Below, in pieces: positions 34,059 to 42,740 of a stretch of DNA of 64,000 bases. The DNA lies in the NCBI GenBank assembly GCA_035294085.1, contig DATGLP010000014.1:1-64000 (forward strand), in the 5' to 3' direction. Origin of the DNA: Acidimicrobiales bacterium. Lineage in GTDB: Bacteria; Actinomycetota; Acidimicrobiia; Acidimicrobiales; Bog-793. Made by a program: the position numbers and the translations under genes. How positions within the stretch are numbered: position 1 is the stretch's first letter; each line of letters opens with the position of its first letter. The notes beneath the pieces are model-generated. The model had not been told where the DNA came from. It saw only the letters and a list, made by a program, of their open reading frames with translations, and searched no databases.

Positions 34059-34149
34059 GCGAGTCCCCTCGCCGGGCGCGCGCCCAGCGGCGCGGCCGAC
34101 CGTCGTCGCCGCGCACTACCGTGGCCACGACGGCCTCGTAGGAGGAGAC

Positions 34150-34530
34150 GTGGCGAGGCGGCTGGTCGCGGGGCAACGGGTCGGTGAGCTCGAGAGCGAC
34201 GTCCTCGAGCTCCTGTGGTCGGCCCGCTCCTGGCTGAGCGGCCGCGAGGTGTGGGAGCGCCTCGGGGGGGAGCCGCGGGCGTACACGACGGTGCTCACGG
34301 TGCTGGGCCGCCTCGTCGACAAGGGGCTCGTCGAGCGCTCGACGCACGACGGCGCACACCGCTTCCGCGCCGCCGGCGACGTCGACGAGCTGACGGCCCA
34401 GGCGATCCGGTCGCTGCTCGCGGCGACGGAGAATCCCCGCGCCGTGCTCGCCCACTTCGTCGACGGCCTCGACGACCCGCAGCTGCTCGCGGACCTCGCC
34501 GACGCGCTGCGCCGGGTCCGGCCGCGGTGA
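34150..34530 (+). CDS. BlaI/MecI/CopY-type transcriptional repressor
   Basis: About 126 residues. The winged helix reads LESDVLELLWSARSWLSGREVWERLG then AYTTVLTVLGRLVDKGLVERSTHDGAHRFRA, the standard BlaI pattern. A dimerisation part follows. It lies directly in front of an M56 membrane metalloprotease with a 4-base GTGA overlap, the classical repressor and sensor-protease arrangement. The palindrome at 35594-35611 is the best candidate operator. GTG start behind AGGAGGAG. Confidence 0.88.
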   Translation: MARRLVAGQRVGELESDVLELLWSARSWLSGREVWERLGGEPRAYTTVLTVLGRLVDKGLVERSTHDGAHRFRAAGDVDELTAQAIRSLLAATENPRAVLAHFVDGLDDPQLLADLADALRRVRPR

Positions 34531-35588
34531 TCTCGCCTGCGCTGGCGCTCGGCGCCGGCCTCTTCGGCTTGCTGGTCGCGGCCGGGGCGCTCGCCCGTCG
34601 CGCCAGGGGAGCTTCGCCGCTCGCCGCCGCCGGCGCCCACCTCGTGAGCCTCCTCGGCTGGGGGATCCTGCCGGTGCTGTGGCTCGCCTGCCTCGGCGCG
34701 ACGCTCGGCTCGCACCTCGCGCGCCTGCCGGCCCGAGGCGGTGGCTGCCTGGCCGGCCTCGACCACCTCGAGTGGCAGCTGCTCGACCTCGTGCCGGCCA
34801 CCCTGGTGCTCGGCGTGCTCGTCTGGCGCTCCGTCGCCGCCGCCGGCGCGACCCGCCGGATCGAGCTGCGCCGAGGGGTGCGGGCGTCGTCGGTGCGGCG
34901 TCCGACGCGAGCGGGCGCGGTGTGGATCGTCCCGGTGTCGCGGCCCGTGGCGTTCGCTGCGGGGATCCTGCGCCCGAGGGCGGTCGTGTCCGCTGGGCTC
35001 CTCGCGTCGCTCGACGCCGCGCAGCGGCAGGCGGTCCTGACGCACGAGGCGGCCCACGTGCGCCTCGGCCACCCCCGCCTGCTCCTCCTCGGCGGCGCCG
35101 TCGCCGCCGCCTACGGCCGGTTCGGGCCCGTGCGCTCCGCCTGGCAGGGGCTGCGCCAGGCCTTCGAGGCGGCCGCCGACGACGAGGCCGCCGCGGCCGC
35201 GGGGACCGGCGTCCTCGTCTCCGCGATCCGGCGCCTCGCGCGCAGCGCGGGGGCCGGCACCGGGCGCGACGGCGGCGCCGAGGAGGTGCACTACCGCGTC
35301 GCCCGGCTCCGCACCGCCCGTCCCGTCGCGCTCGCACCGAGCCTCCTCGTCGGCGCCTTCGCGGTGCTCGTCGGCCTCGCGCTGGCGCTCGACGCCTGCC
35401 TCCTCACGGGGGTACCCGCCACCTCCCTGCGTGTCGGCGCCTGCTTCGCCGTGCTCGCGGCGGTCGGCCTCCGACCGGCGTGGCGGGGGGCCGCCGTCGG
35501 CCGTCGGACGAGTCGCCAGCGGTGCCTCCCCCGCTGCAACGAACCGAGCCCCCCGCCGGCACCGGCGGACGCCTCGGCGTCCGATTGA
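34527..35588 (+). CDS. M56-family membrane metalloprotease (BlaR1-like, no sensor domain)
   Basis: About 353 residues. Several membrane helices (ALGAGLFGLLVAAGALA, LVSLLGWGILPVLWLACLGATLG, LLDLVPATLVLGVLVW, LLVGAFAVLVGLALALDACLL) surround a zinc protease core with VLTHEAAHVRLGH, the HExxH motif, near residue 175, and downstream EAAADDEAAA. It lacks the penicillin-binding sensor domain of BlaR1 proper. In such pairs the protease is thought to inactivate the BlaI repressor on a signal. GTG start overlapping the repressor stop. Confidence 0.85.
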   Translation: MISPALALGAGLFGLLVAAGALARRARGASPLAAAGAHLVSLLGWGILPVLWLACLGATLGSHLARLPARGGGCLAGLDHLEWQLLDLVPATLVLGVLVWRSVAAAGATRRIELRRGVRASSVRRPTRAGAVWIVPVSRPVAFAAGILRPRAVVSAGLLASLDAAQRQAVLTHEAAHVRLGHPRLLLLGGAVAAAYGRFGPVRSAWQGLRQAFEAAADDEAAAAAGTGVLVSAIRRLARSAGAGTGRDGGAEEVHYRVARLRTARPVALAPSLLVGAFAVLVGLALALDACLLTGVPATSLRVGACFAVLAAVGLRPAWRGAAVGRRTSRQRCLPRCNEPSPPPAPADASASD

Positions 35589-35612
35589 CTCGCTACTACG
35601 AATACGTAGTAA
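35585..35612 (+). promoter_or_regulatory. Candidate BlaI operator overlapping a promoter
   Basis: A perfect inverted repeat TACTACG-AATA-CGTAGTA (35594-35611) sits between TTGACT (35585-35590, -35) and TAGTAA (35607-35612, -10 with a 16-base spacer). The TACTA/TAGTA half-site type is what I would expect of an actinobacterial BlaI protein. A repressor bound here would cover the promoter of the Cys-pair/thioredoxin operon that starts at 35673. The -35 overlaps the end of the M56 gene. Confidence 0.65.
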
Positions 35613-35672
35613 GCTGGCGCCGACGGCGCGAGGCGGCAGGAGGCCGCCGAGCACCTGAGCGGAGGCGGGGTG

Positions 35673-35969
35673 GTGACGGGATCGACCGCTCGTGCGCCGA
35701 GCACCGACGCTGCCGAGGGCCGGCTGGACGCCGGAGGCGATCGCACGGCGCGCGAGCGCGGCGGCCTCGGAGCGGGGCTCGTCGTCCTCGCCCTCCCCGT
35801 GCTGTGCTGTGCCGGGCCGGTGCTCGTCGCCGCGCTGGCCGCAGCGAGCGCCGCGGTGCTCGGCCTCGTCGCAGGCCTGGTCGGCGTGGCGCTCGCCGCG
35901 CTCGCCGCCGCCCTGGTGCTCCGGCGGCGACGTCGGGAGGGCTGCACCCGGCCCCTCCACCGGGCATGA
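35673..35969 (+). CDS. Small membrane protein with Cys-Cys pair
   Basis: About 98 residues. A polar N-terminus of about 33 residues is followed by two membrane spans: GLVVLALPVLCCAGPVLVAALAAAS and VLGLVAGLVGVALAALAAALVL. It ends RRRRREGC. The cysteine pair inside the first span recalls the CC pair of MerT/MerF-type mercury carriers, but overall similarity is too weak to name it so. The GTG at 35673 is 7 bases after GGAGG. First gene behind the candidate BlaI operator; it overlaps the next gene by 4 bases (ATGA). Confidence 0.6.
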   Translation: MTGSTARAPSTDAAEGRLDAGGDRTARERGGLGAGLVVLALPVLCCAGPVLVAALAAASAAVLGLVAGLVGVALAALAAALVLRRRRREGCTRPLHRA

Positions 35970-36658
35970 CGCCGAGCGAGCCGCCCGCTCGTCGGGTCAC
36001 CGCCCGGGTGCGCCAGGGCACGAGAGCGCTCGGCGACGTCCTCGGCACTCGCTGGCGCATCGCCGGCTTCGCGCTCGTGTCAGGGAGCGTCGCGTTCTGC
36101 TACACGCTGCTCCTGCCCTTCGACGACACCCAGCGGATCGGCTTCGCCAACTGGGACTACCTCAGCGCCTCCCTGCTCGCCTGGTCGCTCGCCCTCGGCC
36201 TCGCGATGGGCCTCGTCGTGAGCGTGCAGGCCTACGCGCTGCGCAGGGTCGTCGCCGCGCGCACCGCGGCCGGGGCGACGGGCCCCCTGGCGTTCGTGGC
36301 CAGCCTCCTGCCGAGCTTCCTCTGCTGCACCCCGGTCGTCCCGTCGTTCCTCGCCTTCGTCGGCGTCTCTGGCGCAGGGCTGTACGCGACGACCGGGACG
36401 CTCCAGCACTTCTTCGCCGTGCACCAGCACGAGTTCCTCGCCGCGAGCCTGGCGCTCGTGCTCGTGGCGAGCGCGTGGGGACTCGACAAGCTGGGCCGGG
36501 CCGCCTGCGCCGCCGGCGGCTGCGAGCCCGGGACCCGGCCGGAGGAGCGGGCCGGTCGCACGCGCTGGATCGCTCGAAGCTCGCCGACCCCGTCACGGCT
36601 CGCCGGCGAGGGGCCGGGACGCCGGCGAGCGCCGTCGCCCGCGGGGGCGAAGCGATGA
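35966..36658 (+). CDS. Membrane protein with Cys-Cys motif in a transmembrane helix
   Basis: About 230 residues with four likely membrane spans: IAGFALVSGSVAFCYTLLL, LSASLLAWSLALGLAMGLVV, LAFVASLLPSFLCCTPVVPSFLAFV and FLAASLALVLVASAWGL. The third contains SFLCCTPVVPS, a cysteine pair flanked by prolines, and after the fourth comes CAAGGC. Such pairs are used by metal carriers and by membrane thiol-redox proteins. I do not recognise the family by name. ATG overlaps the previous stop; a thioredoxin-fold gene follows after 100 bases. Confidence 0.6.
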   Translation: MTPSEPPARRVTARVRQGTRALGDVLGTRWRIAGFALVSGSVAFCYTLLLPFDDTQRIGFANWDYLSASLLAWSLALGLAMGLVVSVQAYALRRVVAARTAAGATGPLAFVASLLPSFLCCTPVVPSFLAFVGVSGAGLYATTGTLQHFFAVHQHEFLAASLALVLVASAWGLDKLGRAACAAGGCEPGTRPEERAGRTRWIARSSPTPSRLAGEGPGRRRAPSPAGAKR

Positions 36659-36728
36659 GCCGCAGGCGTTGCAGGCGATGGACCGGCGGTCACCAGGGGT
36701 GCGACGCCAGCCTGACGACCAGCGACCT

Positions 36729-36758
36729 GGGAGTGGTGGACGAGGGAGTGGTGGACGA
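36729..36758 (+). repeat. 15-base tandem duplication before the thioredoxin-like gene
   Basis: Two perfect copies of GGGAGTGGTGGACGA (36729-36743 and 36744-36758), the second ending exactly at the GTG start at 36759. It duplicates the purine-rich ribosome-site region. Confidence 0.85.
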
Positions 36759-37394
36759 GTGAGCGAGGCCGTCGCGAAACGGCGCCCGCCGCGGCGGCGC
36801 ACGCCGGCGCGCCGGCGACGCCGGGCAGCGCTCACGGCGGGCGTCGCCGTCGCTGCGCTCGCCGGCGTGCTGGTCGGGCTGCACGAGACGACGAGCGCTC
36901 CCGCGTCGCCCGGCGCGGCGAGGCGGGCCGTCGCGTCGAGGGTGCTCGCGCCGGGGACGGTGGCGCCGCCGGCGACCTTCACCACGCTCGCGGGACGCAC
37001 CGAGTCCCTCGCCGCGCTGCGAGGCGAGCCGGTCCTGCTCTGGCTCGTCACGACCTGGTGCCCCTCGTGCCAGGCGGGCACACGGGAGCTGGCGCGGCAC
37101 CTCGAGGCGCTGCGCGCCGACGGCGTCCGGGTCGTCGAGCTCGAGAACTACGGCGACCTCGGCGCCTCCGGACCTTCGATGGCCACCTTCAGCGCCGACC
37201 TCGCCGGCAGGGCCGTCGACGACCCCGACTGGACCTTCGGACAGGCTTCCTGGGGCCTCACGCGCACGTACAACCCGCAGGCCTTCCTCGACGTCTACTA
37301 CCTCATCGACGCGAGGGGACGGATCGCGTACGTGAACGGCTCGCCCGCCTCGACCATGCCCGAGCTGCTCGCCGCGGCGAAGGCGCTCCCCTGA
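36759..37394 (+). CDS. Membrane-anchored thioredoxin-like (TlpA/redoxin) protein, CPSC
   Basis: About 211 residues. A basic start (KRRPPRRRTPARRRRR) precedes one membrane span (AALTAGVAVAALAGVLVGL). The thioredoxin fold carries the active site TTWCPSCQAGTRELARHL near residue 99, and near its end NPQAFLDVYYLIDARGRIAYVNGSPASTMPELLAAAKAL. It should face outside the membrane and reduce or oxidise disulfides, perhaps those of the Cys-pair membrane proteins before it. GTG start. The stop overlaps the next start by one base. Confidence 0.8.
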   Translation: MSEAVAKRRPPRRRTPARRRRRAALTAGVAVAALAGVLVGLHETTSAPASPGAARRAVASRVLAPGTVAPPATFTTLAGRTESLAALRGEPVLLWLVTTWCPSCQAGTRELARHLEALRADGVRVVELENYGDLGASGPSMATFSADLAGRAVDDPDWTFGQASWGLTRTYNPQAFLDVYYLIDARGRIAYVNGSPASTMPELLAAAKALP

Positions 37395-38037
37395 TGGCGT
37401 CCGGTACCCGGCGAGGATCGACGAGGCGCCGGCGGGTCGCGACAGCCGGGGCGTTCGCCGCCCTCGTCGCCGCCGGGCTCGGCGCGTCCCTCGCGGCGGG
37501 GACGCGCACCGGGGACCGCACGGGCGCGACCGTGCTCGCCGCCCCAGCTGCACCCCTCGCCCCGAACGGCACCTACACGACGCCGTCGGGAGCGACCGCC
37601 ACCATCGCGTCGCTGCGGGGCACGCCGACGATGGTCTGGTTCGTGGCCGGCGGCTGCGCGAGCTGCGCAGCGAGCATCCCGGCCGTCGCCACGCACCTCG
37701 CCGCCCTGCGGCGCGACGGACTGCGCGTGCTCCCCTCGGGCTCGCCGGCGCCTTCGCGCCGGGGCGCACCGGCGCGACCGAGCTGCTCCGCTTCGCGCAG
37801 GCCGCAGCGAGCACGCGCGTGCGCCGCCCCGGCTGGTCGTGGGGGATGGCGTCGCGCTCGCTCAGCCTCGCCTACGACCCCGACCGGGTCCCCGACGTGT
37901 ACGTCCTCATCGACCGGAACGGCCGCCTCCGCTACCGCGGCAGCGTCCCCGTCTCGACCATGCCCGAGCTCCTCGCCGCGGCGGCCCGGCTCGGCCGGGA
38001 CGCCCGTACCGGCGACCCGGGCGCGACGACGCCGTGA
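37394..38037 (+). pseudogene. Second thioredoxin-like gene, interrupted by a one-base frameshift
   Basis: From ATG 37394 the protein has a membrane anchor (AGAFAALVAAGLGASLAAG) and a thioredoxin domain with GGCASCAASIPAVATHLAALRRDGLRVL, a CASC active site. At about 37732-37735, in a run of four C, the frame is lost. The correct continuation lies in another frame, LGLAGAFAPGRTGATELLRF, then RRPGWSWGMA and PDVYVLIDRNGRLRYRGSVPVSTMPELLAAAARL, ending at 38037. One more C in the run would restore a 214-residue protein parallel to the upstream gene. Either a true frameshift or a sequencing error. Confidence 0.75.
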
Positions 38038-38080: not shown

Positions 38081-38452
38081 TCAGGCCGGCGCGTCCACCC
38101 TCGTGCACGCCGCGACCCCGGCGGCGTGGTCGGCGACGATCGAGGCGCCGAGCGCGACGAGCTCGACGACGCGTGGATCGCGGGTTCGGTAGTAGGCGAA
38201 GCGCCCGGCACGGCGCACCTCGAGGAGCCCGCAGGAGACGAGGCAGGCGAGGTGCGCCGAGACGCGGCCCTGGGAGAGGCCGGCGTGGTGGACGCACTCG
38301 GTGCCCGTGCGCTCGGCCTCGGCGCAGAACGCGAGCAGCGCGAGGCGCGTCGGGTCGCCGAGGGCGCGGTAGAAGCGGGCGAGCAGGTCCCGCCCGGCGG
38401 GGTCCTCGGGAACCGGCGGCGTGGGGCTCGCGTCGAGCGTCGCGGTGCTCAT
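38081..38452 (-). CDS. merR: ArsR-family regulator of the mercury resistance pair (MerR-like role)
   Basis: About 123 residues. The winged helix is FYRALGDPTRLALLAFC then GLSQGRVSAHLACLVSCGLLEVRRAGRFAYYRTRDPRVVEL. Cysteines in LLAFCAEAERTGTECVHH, HLACLVSC and near the C-terminus (VAACTRVD) are candidates for Hg(II) binding. In actinobacterial mer operons the regulator called MerR is of the ArsR family, unlike the Gram-negative one, and this protein fits. Its ATG overlaps the merA stop by 4 bases, so it is translated from the merA transcript. Confidence 0.82.
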   Translation of the reverse strand: MSTATLDASPTPPVPEDPAGRDLLARFYRALGDPTRLALLAFCAEAERTGTECVHHAGLSQGRVSAHLACLVSCGLLEVRRAGRFAYYRTRDPRVVELVALGASIVADHAAGVAACTRVDAPA

Positions 38453-39834
38453 GCGGCGCAGCAGGAGAGCCTCGCGACGTCGGTCGCGAAGGACTGGGCG
38501 GCGAGCTTGAGGCCCTCGCCCATCGTCAGGTACGGCGCCCAGGTCGAGGCCAGCTGCTCGACCGTCATGCCCGCCTCGAGGGCGTAGGTGGCCGCGAGGA
38601 TGACGTCGCCGGCTCCCTCGGCGGCCAGGTGCACGCCGACCACCCGCCCCGTCGCGGCGTCGGCCACGATCTTCACCACCCCGCGAGTATCGCGGCTCAC
38701 GATCGCCCGCGGCACGTACGACAGCGGCAGCACCCGGCAGCTGCACGCGAGACCGGCCTTCGCCGCCTGGGCGTCGGTGAGGCCGACCGAGGCGAGGTTC
38801 GGGGCGGTGAAGGTCACCCGGGGCAGGTGCGTCCAGTCCAGGCGGCGCCTCGCGCCGCCGAACGCGTTCTCGACGGCCGTCGTGCCCTGCGCGGCGGCGA
38901 CGTAGACGAACTGCGGCGCACCGGTCACGTCGCCCGCCGCCCAGATCCGCGGGTTCCCGCTGCGCAGGAAGTCGTCGACGACGACGGCGCCCGACGGGGC
39001 CGTCTCGACGCCGACCGCAGCGAGGTCGAGCCCCGCGGTCACCGGACGGCGCCCGGTCGCCACGAGGAGCTGGTCGGCGCGCGCCTCCCGACCGTCCGCC
39101 GTGCGGACGCGCACGCCGCCGGCGTCCCGGGCCACCTCGGCGAGACGGGCCGAGGTCCAGACCTCGACCCCCTCGTCGGCGAGCACCTCGGCGATGACCG
39201 CCGAGAGCTCGGGCTCCTCGCCGGGGGCCACGCGGTCGAGCGCCTCGACGATGGTGACCCGGCACCCGAGGCGCGAGAAGAGCTGGCCGAGCTCGAGCCC
39301 CACGTAGTTGCCGCCGACGACGACGAGCGAGGCAGGCAGCTCGCGCAGCGCGAGGGCGCTCGTCGACGTGAGGTACCCGGCCTCGGCGAGGCCGGGTACC
39401 GGCGGCACCGAGGGCGACGCGCCCGTCGCGACGAGGTAGTGCGCCGCCTCGATGCGCTCGCCGGCGACCTCGAGGGCGGGCCCGGCCACGAAGCGGGCGT
39501 CGCCGTGGACGATCCGCCAGCCGTAGTCGGCGGCGAGGTCCTCGTACCGCTCGGCGCGCAGCGCCTCGACGAGCTCGTCCTTGCCGGCCACGAGCGCCGC
39601 CAGGTCGACCGGTCCTGCGCTCGTCGCGAGCCCGGGGAAGCGGCCGTCGAGGGCCGCACGGCGGGCCGCAGCGGCGGCGAGGAGGGCCTTGGACGGGATG
39701 CACCCGACGTTGACGCACGTCCCGCCCGTCGTCGCACGCTCCACCATCACGACCGACAGCCCCCGGCGTCGGGCCGCGATCGCCGCGGCGAAGCCCGCGC
39801 CCCCCGAGCCGACGATGGCGAGGTCGTAGAGCAT
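38449..39834 (-). CDS. merA: Mercuric reductase (short form, no N-terminal HMA domain)
   Basis: About 461 residues of the class I pyridine nucleotide-disulfide oxidoreductases. FAD site YDLAIVGSGGAGFAAAIAARRRG, redox-active TGGTCVNVGCIPSKALL, NAD site SLVVVGGNYVGLELGQLFSRLG, and the dimer domain with ASVGLTDAQAAKAGL. The C-terminus ends ARLSCCAA, the vicinal cysteine pair that hands Hg(II) to the active site, which separates MerA from dihydrolipoamide dehydrogenase. It reduces Hg(II) to volatile Hg(0) with NADPH. ATG with AAGGAG 7 bases upstream; a palindromic operator covers the start of the transcript. Confidence 0.93.
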   Translation of the reverse strand: MLYDLAIVGSGGAGFAAAIAARRRGLSVVMVERATTGGTCVNVGCIPSKALLAAAAARRAALDGRFPGLATSAGPVDLAALVAGKDELVEALRAERYEDLAADYGWRIVHGDARFVAGPALEVAGERIEAAHYLVATGASPSVPPVPGLAEAGYLTSTSALALRELPASLVVVGGNYVGLELGQLFSRLGCRVTIVEALDRVAPGEEPELSAVIAEVLADEGVEVWTSARLAEVARDAGGVRVRTADGREARADQLLVATGRRPVTAGLDLAAVGVETAPSGAVVVDDFLRSGNPRIWAAGDVTGAPQFVYVAAAQGTTAVENAFGGARRRLDWTHLPRVTFTAPNLASVGLTDAQAAKAGLACSCRVLPLSYVPRAIVSRDTRGVVKIVADAATGRVVGVHLAAEGAGDVILAATYALEAGMTVEQLASTWAPYLTMGEGLKLAAQSFATDVARLSCCAA

Positions 39835-39845
39835 GGAAGTCTCCT

Positions 39846-39872
39846 TACACCCGGATATCCGGATGTATCGTA
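39846..39872 (-). promoter_or_regulatory. Operator and -10 region of the merA-merR operon
   Basis: A 22-base near-perfect palindrome (39846-39867, ACACCCGGAT next to ATCCGGATGT with one mismatch, core CGGATATCCG) lies between the merA ribosome site and a minus-strand -10 box TACGAT (39867-39872). Its place over the transcription start is right for an ArsR-type repressor such as the co-transcribed merR product. Confidence 0.65.
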
Positions 39873-40264
39873 CCGCACCTCGCACGCGCCTGCCACGCCG
39901 CCGGCGTCGCGTCGATCGGCGGGCCCGCCGCGACCGCCGAGGCCCCGCCCTCCCGCACCACGGATCGGCGCCGCTCGCGGGCGGCGCGCCGCGCGGCCCG
40001 AGAGCCGTCGGCGAGGAGGGCGAGCGCGAGCGCCCCCCGGACCGGGAGGGTCGGGACAGCGCCGTCGCCTCGCGGGCCGGATCGACGCCCGAGCGCGGCG
40101 AGGCGGGCGAGGGCCGCCCCGTCCCGGCGGCGCACGCCGCGACGCTCGGCGAGGACCCACGAACGCCCGGGCGCACCTCAGGCGCGTGCCCGCCGCGACG
40201 GCTCACGGCTCCCCGAGCCGACGGGGGCGCCGCCAGCTCGGTGCCGGCCCGGGTCGCAGCCTCC
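39873..40264. other. Intergenic stretch, no gene recognised
   Basis: About 390 GC-rich bases between the merA promoter and the end of the YbjQ-type operon. Open frames here give only arginine- and alanine-rich translations without motifs. It should contain the upstream part of the merA promoter; no hairpin terminator stood out. Confidence 0.45.
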
Positions 40265-41095
40265 TCAGCGCGCCGTGCGCAGCGAGCGCGCCTCGAAGGC
40301 GCGTGCCGGGTCGTCGAGCGGGAGGACGAGCTCGGGCTCGAGGCGGCGGGGCCGCTCGGCCGCGAGGCGCAGCGCGGTGCCGTAGCAGACGAAGGCGAGG
40401 ACGTGACGGGCGTGCCCCAGGGGGGCGTCCAGGATGGACACGTCGACGACGCCCGTGGCGCCGGCGCCGAGCGCCGAGCGCTGCAGGCGCTCCATCGCCC
40501 GCTCGCGCGCGTCCTGGAGGGCGCGCGTCAGGTTGTCGAGCTCGACGTTCTGGCCCGCCTGGGCGACGAGCTGACGGAGGGACCGCAGTGGCGCGGCGAC
40601 GAGGCTCGCCCCGGACACGAGGTCGACGGGCTCGAAGCCCGCCCGGGCGAGGAGCACGTAGTCCTGGACCGAGAGGTCGGTCACGAAGGGGCGCACGCCG
40701 CCTGGCCGCCTGGCACCGAGCGGGCGGACGGCCGTCCCGCACAGCGAGACCTGGACCGCGAGCCGCCCGATGCCGAGCTCGACGTCGACGCCGACCACGC
40801 CGGCACCCCCTGCCGCTGCGCACTCGGCGCGCAGTCGCTCGGCGCTCGCCCGGAAGGCGCCCGTCACCGCCTCGGTGGCAGCGGCGAGCTCGACGGGCTC
40901 GCGCTGGCCCACCACGGCGCCGAAGCTGCCGAAGGGGATGGACTGGATCGACACGCCGCTCACGAGGTCGGCGGGCTCGAACCCGGCGCCGTGGAGGAGG
41001 AGGGACTCGTCGACCGACAGGTCGGACGTCGCGGCGCGCCCGGCCGGCGGCGGCGCGCCGAGCGCCGCGAGCGCGGCGCGCAGGTCCTCGCTCAC
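40265..41095 (-). CDS. Double YbjQ/heavy-metal-binding domain protein C
   Basis: About 276 residues with two copies of the YbjQ (Pfam 'heavy-metal binding') fold. Copy 1 begins TSDLSVDESLLLHGAGFEPADLVSGVS, copy 2 VTDLSVQDYVLLARAGFEPVDLVSGAS. Each continues with a helix such as LTRALQDARERAMERLQ and a strand ending in a GTAV or GTAL turn. YbjQ proteins form pentamers; metal binding was proposed from structure and their role is unknown. Last gene of a four-gene leftward operon. GTG start overlapping the previous stop (41092) by 4 bases. Confidence 0.78.
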   Translation of the reverse strand: MSEDLRAALAALGAPPPAGRAATSDLSVDESLLLHGAGFEPADLVSGVSIQSIPFGSFGAVVGQREPVELAAATEAVTGAFRASAERLRAECAAAGGAGVVGVDVELGIGRLAVQVSLCGTAVRPLGARRPGGVRPFVTDLSVQDYVLLARAGFEPVDLVSGASLVAAPLRSLRQLVAQAGQNVELDNLTRALQDARERAMERLQRSALGAGATGVVDVSILDAPLGHARHVLAFVCYGTALRLAAERPRRLEPELVLPLDDPARAFEARSLRTAR

Positions 41096-41934
41096 CGGTC
41101 CACGAGCCGCACGACCGGACGCGGCGGCGGGAGCGGCTCGACGTCCTTGAAGCGCCGGACCCGGTTCCCGCGCAGCTCCGCCTCGACCTGGGGACCGCCG
41201 GCGGCCTCGACCTCGCGCACGACGAGGCGTGCCGCGTGCAGCACGTCGCCCCCGAGCTGGTCGCGCACGCGCTCGCGCGCGAGCGCACGAGCCTGGGTGT
41301 GCGCCCGGACGAGCTGGTCGATCTCGCCGACCGGCGCCGCGCCGTAGGTCACGGTGCCGACGCCGCGCAGCTGGTACTCGGTGACGCACGAGGCGAGCAC
41401 CCCCACCGAGGCGAAGCCGACGGCGATCGCGACCGGCGCGAAGCCCGCCTCGACGAGCTTGCGCAGCTTCTGGCCGGCGAGGAAGGTCGTGAAGGGCGCG
41501 CCCGGCGCCGCAGACCCCTCGAGGGCGACCGCGGTGCCCGAGAGCGAGAACTCGACGGCGGGCGGCGCCGCGAGGCGCTCCACGCGTGCCGAGACGCCGA
41601 TCACCCCGTGCGCCTCGTAGCGGCGGGCCTCGTCGAGGAGGCGATCGTAGGCGGCGCGAAGGCCGCCGAACCAGGCCTCTTCGAGCCAGGTCTGCTCGTA
41701 GTTGTAGCCGTAGAGGCGGTGGTCGGCCGAGACGAAGCCGTGCGGGCAGGGGAACTGCTCGTAGTAGCCGCGGGCGCCGGGCGCACCGGCGCCGAGGAAG
41801 CCCCAGGAGACGACCGAGCAGCCCTGGACGAAGGCGAGCGGCTGCAGCCCCATCGCTCTCGTCGCGGCGAAGTCGTTCGTCGACAGCGCCGAGGACCACG
41901 CCCCGGTGCGCGCCGTGCGGCTGGGCTCGGTCAC
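41092..41934 (-). CDS. Double YbjQ-like domain protein B (divergent)
   Basis: About 280 residues. The first domain starts ALSTNDFAATRAMGLQPLAFVQGCSVVSWGFLG and has a long insertion (YYEQFPCPHGFVSADHRLYGYNYEQTWLEEAW) before RLLDEARRYEAHGVIGVSARVE. The second starts PFTTFLAGQKLRKLVEAGFAPVAIAVGFASVGV. It keeps the alternating pattern of its neighbours but is the most diverged of the three. Same operon; its GTG overlaps the stop of gene A by 4 bases. Function unknown. Confidence 0.75.
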   Translation of the reverse strand: MTEPSRTARTGAWSSALSTNDFAATRAMGLQPLAFVQGCSVVSWGFLGAGAPGARGYYEQFPCPHGFVSADHRLYGYNYEQTWLEEAWFGGLRAAYDRLLDEARRYEAHGVIGVSARVERLAAPPAVEFSLSGTAVALEGSAAPGAPFTTFLAGQKLRKLVEAGFAPVAIAVGFASVGVLASCVTEYQLRGVGTVTYGAAPVGEIDQLVRAHTQARALARERVRDQLGGDVLHAARLVVREVEAAGGPQVEAELRGNRVRRFKDVEPLPPPRPVVRLVDR

Positions 41935-42740
41935 AGGTCGAGGGAGATGACCGACTGCGGCGTCGGCGGGGGCGGGGCGCCCGGCGCGGCGGCCACCGCC
42001 GTCCCGAGCGCGAGGAACTCGATCGTGTGGCTCCCCCACGTGTGGGACTTCTCCACGAGCTTCACCTCGACGACGCCCGAGGCCTCGAGCCGGTTCGCCT
42101 CGTCCTGCATGCGCGTCATGGCGAGCTCGCGCGCGTCGTAGAGCGCCTGGGTGTAGTTCGGAAGCTCCACGTTGCGACCGAGCTGGGACAGCGACTGGGA
42201 CAGCCCGCGGTGCGCGATGTGGTAGACGCAGGTGCCCATCACGAGGCCGAGCGGCACGTGCCCGACGCGCAGCAGGGTCCAGAAGGCCTGGCCCGACAGG
42301 TCGGAGGTGAAGGGCTTGCCGGCCACGTTCCGGTAGGAGCGGCCGTCCTCGGCGCGGATCGCCGTGCCCATCGCGATGAACTCGGCCGCGTCCGAGCCGA
42401 ACTCGTAGTAGTTGACGTCGAGGCGCACGCCGACGACGCCGTCGGCGCCGAGGGCGTCGGCCTCCTCCTCCATGCGGTTCATCGCCAGCTCGCGCGCCTC
42501 GTACATCGCCGAGGTGAGCTTCGTCAGCTCCTGGCTCCGCCCCCAGCGCCGCGCCTGCAGCCCGATGTGGTAGATCGACGAGCCCATCACGAAGCCGAGG
42601 GGGTGGAAGCCGGCTTCCTTCACGAGGAGGAACTCGTTCACCGACAGGTCCGAGGTGAACAGGCCCCGCTCGAGCTCGGCGAGGCGGCGACCGGCGTCGG
42701 CCGGGAGGTCCGCCGGCAGGCGGCCCGGCTCGGCGGCCAT
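41931..42740 (-). CDS. Double YbjQ/heavy-metal-binding domain protein A
   Basis: About 269 residues, two clear YbjQ domains: FTSDLSVNEFLLVKEAGFHPLGFVMGSSIYHIG then MYEARELAMNRMEEEADALGADGVVGVRLDV, and again FTSDLSGQAFWTLLRVGHVPLGLVMGTCVYHIA then LYDARELAMTRMQDEANRLEASGVVEVKLVE. The shared phrase YxARELAMxRMxxEA with a following Gly-Val strand is the family hallmark. No signal peptide, so it should act in the cytoplasm. It follows the 132-residue protein in a TGATG overlap. Confidence 0.8.
   Translation of the reverse strand: MAAEPGRLPADLPADAGRRLAELERGLFTSDLSVNEFLLVKEAGFHPLGFVMGSSIYHIGLQARRWGRSQELTKLTSAMYEARELAMNRMEEEADALGADGVVGVRLDVNYYEFGSDAAEFIAMGTAIRAEDGRSYRNVAGKPFTSDLSGQAFWTLLRVGHVPLGLVMGTCVYHIAHRGLSQSLSQLGRNVELPNYTQALYDARELAMTRMQDEANRLEASGVVEVKLVEKSHTWGSHTIEFLALGTAVAAAPGAPPPPTPQSVISLDL

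What the first reader, a model, noticed from the sequence alone, without database searches (positions are those of the whole stretch)
35585..38037. Candidate BlaI regulon: Cys-pair membrane proteins with thioredoxins
The only BlaI-like palindrome I found near the blaI-M56 pair (TACTACG-AATA-CGTAGTA) does not lie in front of blaI itself but over the promoter of a downstream operon. Its genes place a Cys-Cys in a membrane helix (LPVLCCAGP and SFLCCTPVVPS) beside two exported thioredoxin-like proteins (CPSC, CASC). This looks like a membrane thiol relay or metal carrier controlled by a protease-sensed repressor without a beta-lactam sensor domain.
Basis: partly seen in the sequence, partly recalled or inferred. 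Interest (0 to 1): 0.58.

Follow-up and report, generated by a model that had tools for sequence, protein, structure and literature searches.

The report
Protease-controlled mercury uptake genes
Next to a mercury-detoxifying enzyme, this bacterium carries a set of membrane and thioredoxin-like genes that look like a mercury uptake chain, apparently switched by a repressor and membrane protease pair best known from antibiotic resistance, which would be a new way of controlling mercury resistance.

Summary
The palindrome is real (35594-35611, exact, between TTGACT and TAAGCT) and is the only exact copy in the genome. Relatives keep the order BlaI, M56 protease, palindrome, two CC membrane proteins, two TlpA-like proteins. 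A palindrome scoring at least 9 of 12 lies before the CC operon in all 9 clusters with adjacent BlaI and in 0 of 10 without. In clusters then found from the membrane protein alone, 4 of 4 with BlaI carry a perfect 12/12 site there and 3 without BlaI (one a repeat) carry none. merA passes its family cut-off in 9 of 10 genomes with the membrane protein against 3 of 40 others; merB sits beside two relatives. The M56 proteases are a separate subfamily with an extra cysteine pair (C55, C291) absent from 39 other M56 proteins. Best reading: BlaI represses a MerF/MerT-like uptake operon; a sensor-less BlaR1-like protease relieves repression, perhaps by sensing Hg(II) itself. Binding, cleavage and sensing are inferred. 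The window copy has one frameshifted thioredoxin gene.

The parts
34126..34143 (.). Degenerate second BlaI-type site (CACGACGGCCTCGTAGGA, 9 of 12) before blaI, right half in the Shine-Dalgarno region
   Evidence: site at this position in 9 of 9 adjacent-BlaI clusters (9-10 of 12 in 8, 7 of 12 in L033)
34150..34530 (+). BlaI/MecI-family repressor, 126 aa, no cysteine
   Evidence: PF03965 65.4 bits; PDB 2g9w E 2.8e-12
34527..35588 (+). BlaR1-like M56/M48 zinc protease, 353 aa, HEAAH, no C-terminal sensor domain; cysteines C55, C74, C291, C306
   Evidence: PF01435 35.2 bits over cut-off, PF05569 22.9 bits under cut-off; model of relative L010 aligns to BlaR1 8ext Z 11.1, 210 aa; Cys columns
35585..35590 (+). 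-35-like TTGACT
   Evidence: conserved in most relatives
35594..35611 (.). Operator TACTACGAATACGTAGTA (TACTAC-N6-GTAGTA)
   Evidence: GTAGTA invariant in 16 of 16 aligned sites
35610..35615 (+). -10-like TAAGCT (TANNNT), 19-base spacer
   Evidence: T at the last -10 position in 15 of 16
35670..35969 (+). CC99: two-helix membrane protein, Cys-Cys in helix 1; most relatives have a second Cys-Cys after helix 2, the window copy one Cys
   Evidence: no curated family; MerE model E 0.053, far under cut-off
35966..36658 (+). CC231: membrane protein, Cys-Cys (C120, C121) in a membrane helix, invariant C181
36759..37394 (+). Membrane-anchored or exported TlpA/ResA-like thioredoxin, CPSC (CSSC in most relatives)
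   Evidence: PF00578 33.8 bits, cut-off 26
37394..38037 (+). Second TlpA-like thioredoxin, GGCASCAASIP motif, frameshifted near 37735
38081..38452 (-). ArsR/SmtB-family regulator, CmtR-like cysteines (HLACLVSCG, C-terminal C)
   Evidence: NF033788 71.2 bits, cut-off 55; alignment
38449..39834 (-). Mercuric reductase MerA, C-terminal Cys-Cys, no N-terminal metal-binding domain
   Evidence: TIGR02053 572.9 bits, cut-off 454.45; start codon
39848..39865 (.). Near-perfect palindrome CATCCGGATATCCGGGTG before merA; candidate ArsR site, unlike the BlaI site

Best explanation
This is a mercury-resistance locus with split regulation. merA and arsR form one unit with its own palindrome, presumably under the CmtR-like ArsR. 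The uptake part (two small membrane proteins with Cys-Cys in a membrane helix, and two exported thioredoxin-fold proteins) is a separate operon whose promoter carries a BlaI operator. BlaI represses this operon and its own blaI-M56 operon. The BlaR1-like protease, which has no beta-lactam sensor domain, is activated by an envelope signal, most likely Hg(II) or thiol damage by Hg(II), removes BlaI, and the uptake chain is made: exported CxxC proteins capture Hg(II), hand it to the membrane Cys pairs and on to MerA in the cytoplasm. Shown here: gene identities, conserved order, operator conservation and its link to BlaI, association with merA/merB, protease fold, subfamily-specific cysteines. 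Inferred: DNA binding, BlaI cleavage, the signal, Hg transport.
For: MerA over cut-off, ArsR adjacent; merB beside two relatives, 120.6 and 110.1 bits, both clusters of one MAG. merA over cut-off in 9 of 10 CC231-positive genomes against 3 of 40 others (Fisher 8e-7). Site before the CC operon: at least 9 of 12 in 9 of 9 clusters with adjacent BlaI, 0 of 10 without (Fisher 1e-5). Held-out clusters found by CC231 only: 4 of 4 with BlaI have 12/12 between M56 and CC99 and 10-11 of 12 before blaI; 3 without BlaI, one a repeat of L008/L009, have none there. Conexibacter (L022) has two tandem dyads before a Trx-CC-CC-Trx-BlaI-M56 operon. M56 hits of 158 bits or more occur in 6 of 395 class genomes, all 6 CC231-positive; the 29 genomes with weaker hits (50.6 bits or less) are all CC231-negative. 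C55 is in 15 of 15 cluster-linked M56 and 0 of 35 aligned controls; C291 in 14 of 15 and 0 of 38.
Against: No binding, cleavage or mercury data exist. One genome (G093) has CC231 and a close BlaI-M56 pair on another short contig, but no canonical site before the CC operon (7 of 12) or blaI. CC99 and CC231 match no curated family at cut-off and CC231 matches no solved fold, so the transport role rests on Cys placement and context. The N19 spacer is also typical of MerR-type promoters (recalled). The clusters are related, so counts are not independent. In the window copy one thioredoxin gene is frameshifted, CC99 lacks the second Cys pair and the blaI-proximal site is weak.
Confidence: 0.72

Rival explanations
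1. The palindrome is bound by the ArsR protein or by a MerR-family activator, and the BlaI-M56 pair is only a neighbour.
For: TTGACT-N19-TANNNT geometry recalls MerR promoters (recalled); the own genome holds 7 MerR_1-family matches; ArsR is adjacent.
Against: Site presence follows BlaI presence and the same motif sits before blaI. Clusters with ArsR/MerA but no BlaI lack it. merA has a different palindrome, seen at 10-12 of 12 before merA or arsR in several loci. None of the 7 MerR_1 matches lies on contig C14, which holds the window.
Confidence: 0.06
2. A general envelope thiol/disulfide stress system (Dsb- or cytochrome-maturation-like) that travels with merA but does not handle mercury.
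For: Two TlpA/ResA-like CxxC proteins; transport families not assigned; a second MerA-like flavoprotein lies between M56 and the operator in three related clusters.
Against: merA over cut-off in 9 of 10 CC231-positive genomes against 3 of 40 others; merA directly upstream of CC99-CC231 in several clusters without BlaI; merB beside two clusters; Cys-Cys in membrane helices as described for MerT and MerE (PMC5715351, passages).
Confidence: 0.13
3. The pair senses beta-lactams or cell-wall damage, as classical BlaI-BlaR1 does, and mercury genes were drawn into that regulon by chance.
For: BlaI family and BlaR1-like fold; M. tuberculosis BlaR1 also lacks a sensor domain (PMC9834060, passages).
Against: No sensor domain; no second operator found at another gene of the own genome; the protease subfamily is confined to CC231 genomes in the class sample.
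Confidence: 0.03
4. The system is real in relatives but decaying in this genome.
For: Frameshift in the second thioredoxin gene, second Cys pair of CC99 reduced to one Cys, weak blaI-proximal site, AVCEHE cysteine absent.
Against: The main operator is perfect; MerA, ArsR, BlaI, M56, CC99 and CC231 are intact; one indel in a MAG may be a sequencing error.
Confidence: 0.12

Closest known systems
mer operons with ArsR-type control (Streptomyces lividans, Bacteroidetes, Archaea; PMC3466566, passages)
   Same: MerA plus an ArsR regulator; merB in relatives
   Different: No merT/merP; unassigned CC membrane proteins and TlpA-like proteins instead; the uptake part is under BlaI-M56. In that survey of 272 operons all but two had merR or arsR and BlaI is not mentioned.
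BlaI-BlaR1 / MecI-MecR1 of Staphylococcus aureus
   Same: Repressor plus membrane zinc protease of the same fold (Z 11.1), adjacent genes, inverted-repeat operators, autoregulation
   Different: No extracellular beta-lactam sensor domain; regulated genes are mercury genes; extra Cys pair
BlaI-BlaR (Rv1846c-Rv1845c) of Mycobacterium tuberculosis
   Same: BlaI structure 2g9w is the only PDB sequence match (that 2g9w is the M. tuberculosis BlaI is recalled); the protease lacks a sensor domain (PMC9834060, passages)
   Different: Regulon there is blaC, ATP synthase and others (recalled; partly PMC12565901, passages); here a single mercury locus
MerF / MerE / MerT mercury transporters
   Same: Cys-Cys in a membrane helix; CC99 has two helices and in most relatives a second Cys pair at the end
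   Different: No significant sequence match; CC231 has two extra N-terminal helices

Membership tests
mer (mercury resistance) locus | Mercuric reductase MerA | tested here: met
   TIGR02053 572.9 bits against cut-off 454.45
mer (mercury resistance) locus | MerR or ArsR metalloregulator | tested here: met
   ArsR/SmtB NF033788 71.2 bits, cut-off 55
mer (mercury resistance) locus | MerT/MerP, MerC, MerF, MerE or MerH transport proteins | tested here: not met
   No Pfam or NCBIfam match at cut-off for CC99 or CC231
mer (mercury resistance) locus | Hg(II)-inducible resistance | not testable with these tools
   needs culture or heterologous expression
BlaI/MecI/CopY repressor family | Penicillinase_R domain | tested here: met
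   PF03965 65.4 bits, cut-off 22.6
BlaI/MecI/CopY repressor family | Inverted-repeat operator at own and target promoters | tested here: met
   (sequence conservation only, no binding)
BlaR1 | M56 zinc protease with membrane helices, HExxH | tested here: met
   H, E and H of HExxH invariant; BlaR1 8ext Z 11.1, rmsd 5.1, 210 aa, model of L010. PF05569 itself 22.9 bits under cut-off 31, PF01435 over cut-off
BlaR1 | C-terminal extracellular penicillin-binding sensor domain | tested here: not met
   353 aa; no such domain in Pfam or NCBIfam; alignment ends after the last helix. Hence filed as BlaR1-like, not BlaR1
MerF/MerE/MerT | Family profile score over curated cut-off | tested here: not met
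   Window CC99 MerE 13.5 bits against 80; CC231 no match, MerTP model E 0.02 in 1 of 20 members; MerF PF11431 E 1.4 in one member
MerF/MerE/MerT | Vicinal Cys pair in a membrane helix | tested here: met
   CC invariant in 14 of 14 CC99 and 20 of 20 CC231

The most novel reading that the evidence does not exclude
The M56 protease is itself a mercury receptor: a BlaR1-type protease that, in place of the beta-lactam sensor domain, uses an added pair of membrane cysteines (C55 in helix 2, C291 at the outer end of the helix after the protease domain), next to the family-wide extracytoplasmic pair C74/C306, to bind Hg(II) and trigger BlaI removal. This would be protease-coupled metal sensing across the membrane and a third class of mer regulator beside MerR and ArsR.
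Probability: 0.35. Interest if true: 0.82.

Novelty: new variant of a known kind. Interest (0 to 1): 0.62.

Why it matters
Known mer operons are read from inside the cell by MerR or ArsR. Here the uptake half appears to be gated by a membrane protease that faces outward, so a cell could tune mercury import to what is outside while ArsR tunes reduction to what is inside. It also gives the many sensor-less BlaR1 homologues, including that of M. tuberculosis whose signal is unclear, a concrete ligand class and residues to test. CC99, CC231 and the paired TlpA-like proteins are candidate new mercury transport parts.

Tried and rejected
Sigma-70 promoter and terminator scan of the region: nothing found (it allows spacers of 16-18 only). 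Other own-genome operator targets: the only other full-core match lies inside an rpsF-like frame, rejected as chance. MerB in the own genome: no match, but the control set did not ring either, so absence is not shown. Fold search of CC231: no useful match. Foldseek on the M56 model alone: no E under 0.001; VIA-align then ranked BlaR1 first. CC231 on plasmids: no match. PDB profile searches with CC231 and CC99 alignments: nothing meaningful. A broader thiol count (Cys per 100 aa) separates cluster-linked from other M56 only weakly (1.98 against 1.62); the two specific columns do. A different palindrome before blaI in G093 (TGCACATATGTGCA, L088 1828-1841) was not found before its CC operon. Literature: searches listed no paper on BlaI/M56 control of mercury genes; the four papers (among them PMC7239810, with one mention of BlaI and 11 of mercuric) were seen in the listing only. 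The Sala et al. 2009 BlaI motif paper was not seen beyond its entry in a reference list.
Full report
Observation. The palindrome TACTACGAATACGTAGTA lies at 35594-35611, between a TTGACT at 35585-35590 and a TAAGCT at 35610-35615, 58 bases before the first gene of the operon. It is the only exact copy in the 2.42 Mb genome. The relaxed core CTACGN4YGTAGKA has one further full match in the genome, inside an S6-like ribosomal protein frame (the S6 naming is recalled). The genome holds one clear BlaI (64.9 bits; two more matches at 21.5-22.9 bits sit at the cut-off).

What the genes are. BlaI is PF03965 (65.4 bits). The protease scores over cut-off as Peptidase_M48 and under cut-off as M56; a model of its relative L010 (pLDDT 83) aligns best to S. 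aureus BlaR1 (8ext, Z 11.1, rmsd 5.1, 210 residues). It ends soon after its last helix, so there is no beta-lactam sensor domain. CC99 and CC231 match no curated family at cut-off. The thioredoxin-fold proteins are TlpA/ResA-like, with conserved WCSSCQAGT-like and GGCASCAASIP-like motifs in most relatives; the second is frameshifted in the window. Convergent to the operon, on the minus strand, lie arsR (38081-38452) and merA (38449-39834; TIGR02053 572.9 bits against 454.45). The ArsR protein has the HLxCLxxCG and C-terminal cysteines of CmtR-type sensors (CmtR model 48.1 bits, under its cut-off of 150; the residue assignment is recalled). merA has its own near-perfect palindrome at 39848-39865; similar sites at 10-12 of 12 precede merA or arsR in several relatives.

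Mercury. Of 50 genomes searched for MerA, 12 pass the cut-off: 9 of the 10 that have CC231 (the tenth, G047, has only a doubtful CC231 match, E 2.7e-4) and 3 of 40 that do not (Fisher 8e-7; relatedness not corrected). In several clusters without BlaI, merA stands directly upstream of CC99-CC231. Two clusters of one MAG (L006, L011) carry merB nearby (110.1 and 120.6 bits). This is why I name mercury rather than an unspecified metal.

Operator and BlaI. First set (loci): in the 200 bases before CC99, or before CC231 where no CC99 was found, 9 of 9 clusters with adjacent BlaI score 9-12 of 12 against TACTAC-N6-GTAGTA (at most 1.8% of shuffles reach this, taking all 12 printed rows), while 10 of 10 without adjacent BlaI score 6-8 (at least 8% of shuffles). 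Three further loci (L012, L014, L015) carry the site without BlaI in the DNA held. Two of them, L012 and L014, come from MAGs that hold another cluster with BlaI (L016 and L017), as expected for action in trans. Second set, found by the CC231 profile alone and not used to define the motif: 4 of 4 with BlaI (L089, from a genome related only at phylum level, L106, L107, L108) have a perfect 12/12 site between M56 and CC99 and a 10-11 of 12 site before blaI (in L108 about 270 bases before it); L109, L110 and L105 (the last repeats L008/L009) have no BlaI and no such site before the CC genes (weak 9-10 of 12 matches occur elsewhere in these loci, one of 9 some 250 bases before merA in L105). In the Conexibacter genome L022 the order is Trx, CC99, CC231, Trx, BlaI, M56, and two tandem dyads (10 and 9 of 12) lie before the first gene. 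Across 16 aligned sites GTAGTA is invariant and T ends a TANNNT -10 in 15, with TTGACT 19 bases upstream in most. The exception is G093: CC231 and a close BlaI-M56 pair on another short contig, but no canonical site.

The protease. In 395 genomes of the class, hits to this protease of 158 bits or more occur in 6, all among the 11 with CC231; the other 29 genomes with a hit stay at or under 50.6 bits and none has CC231. So it is a subfamily tied to this cluster. Against 39 other BlaR-type M56 proteins (one counted twice), two cysteines are shared by nearly all (C74 in 31 of 32 aligned, C306 in 28 of 29), but C55 (15 of 15 cluster-linked, 0 of 35 aligned controls) and C291 (14 of 15, and 15 of 15 within three columns; 0 of 38) belong to the mercury clusters. 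Five of 39 controls have some Cys within three columns of C55. By the helix positions of the model and the BlaR1 topology, C74, C291 and C306 should lie at the outer face and C55 in the outer half of helix 2. That placement is inference; no distances were computed. C55 held in all four held-out proteins.

Mechanism. PMC5715351 (passages) describes the classical route: Hg(II) passes from the MerP cysteines to the Cys pair in the first helix of MerT, to cytoplasmic MerT cysteines, to the C-terminal Cys pair of MerA. The cluster can supply each station with other parts: exported CxxC proteins, Cys-Cys in a helix of CC231 and CC99, terminal cysteines, and MerA with its terminal Cys-Cys. This is what it works like; membership of MerT/MerF/MerE was tested and not met. 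Regulation would be double: ArsR inside for merA, BlaI-M56 for uptake.

Known and new. The survey PMC3466566 (passages) found merR or arsR in all but two of 272 mer operons and does not mention BlaI. My searches listed no paper on BlaI/M56 control of mercury genes in the held library; subscription papers are missing from it. PMC9834060 (passages) notes that the M. tuberculosis homologue lacks a sensor domain and that it is unclear how it detects its signal. BlaI operators reported elsewhere are inverted repeats at own and target promoters (PMC8457756, passages; TACA/TGTA in PMC4549145, passages), consistent in kind with the site here.

Verdict. I know of no experiment on this system. Confidence: BlaI-operator link about 0.9, mercury function about 0.85, direct Hg sensing by the protease about 0.35.

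Noticed in passing
L006 3299-4648, L011 3635-4984, L013 4511-5407 (minus strand): A second MerA-like flavoprotein (338 bits to TIGR02053 in L006, under the cut-off) lies between M56 and the operator, divergent from the CC operon; it may share the BlaI promoter region.
   Followed up: partly
window 37394-38037: Second thioredoxin gene frameshifted near 37735; pseudogene or assembly error not decided.
   Followed up: partly
L088 1828-1841 (G093): Perfect palindrome TGCACATATGTGCA before a divergent BlaI-M56 pair of the same subfamily; possibly a changed operator.
   Followed up: partly
window 39848-39865; L036, L038, L011, L016, L006: ATCCGNNTANNCGGAT-like palindrome before merA or arsR; candidate operator of the mercury ArsR.
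   Followed up: partly
L016 8132-8809 and L011 8193-8846: Conserved 217-225 aa protein of unknown family with one N-terminal helix, following the second thioredoxin gene in these clusters.
   Followed up: no
window 40203-42740 (minus strand): Several ORFs with repeated TSDLSVxExLLxxxAGFxPxxxVxG-like units beyond merA; look like YbjQ-type domains (recalled, not tested).
   Followed up: no
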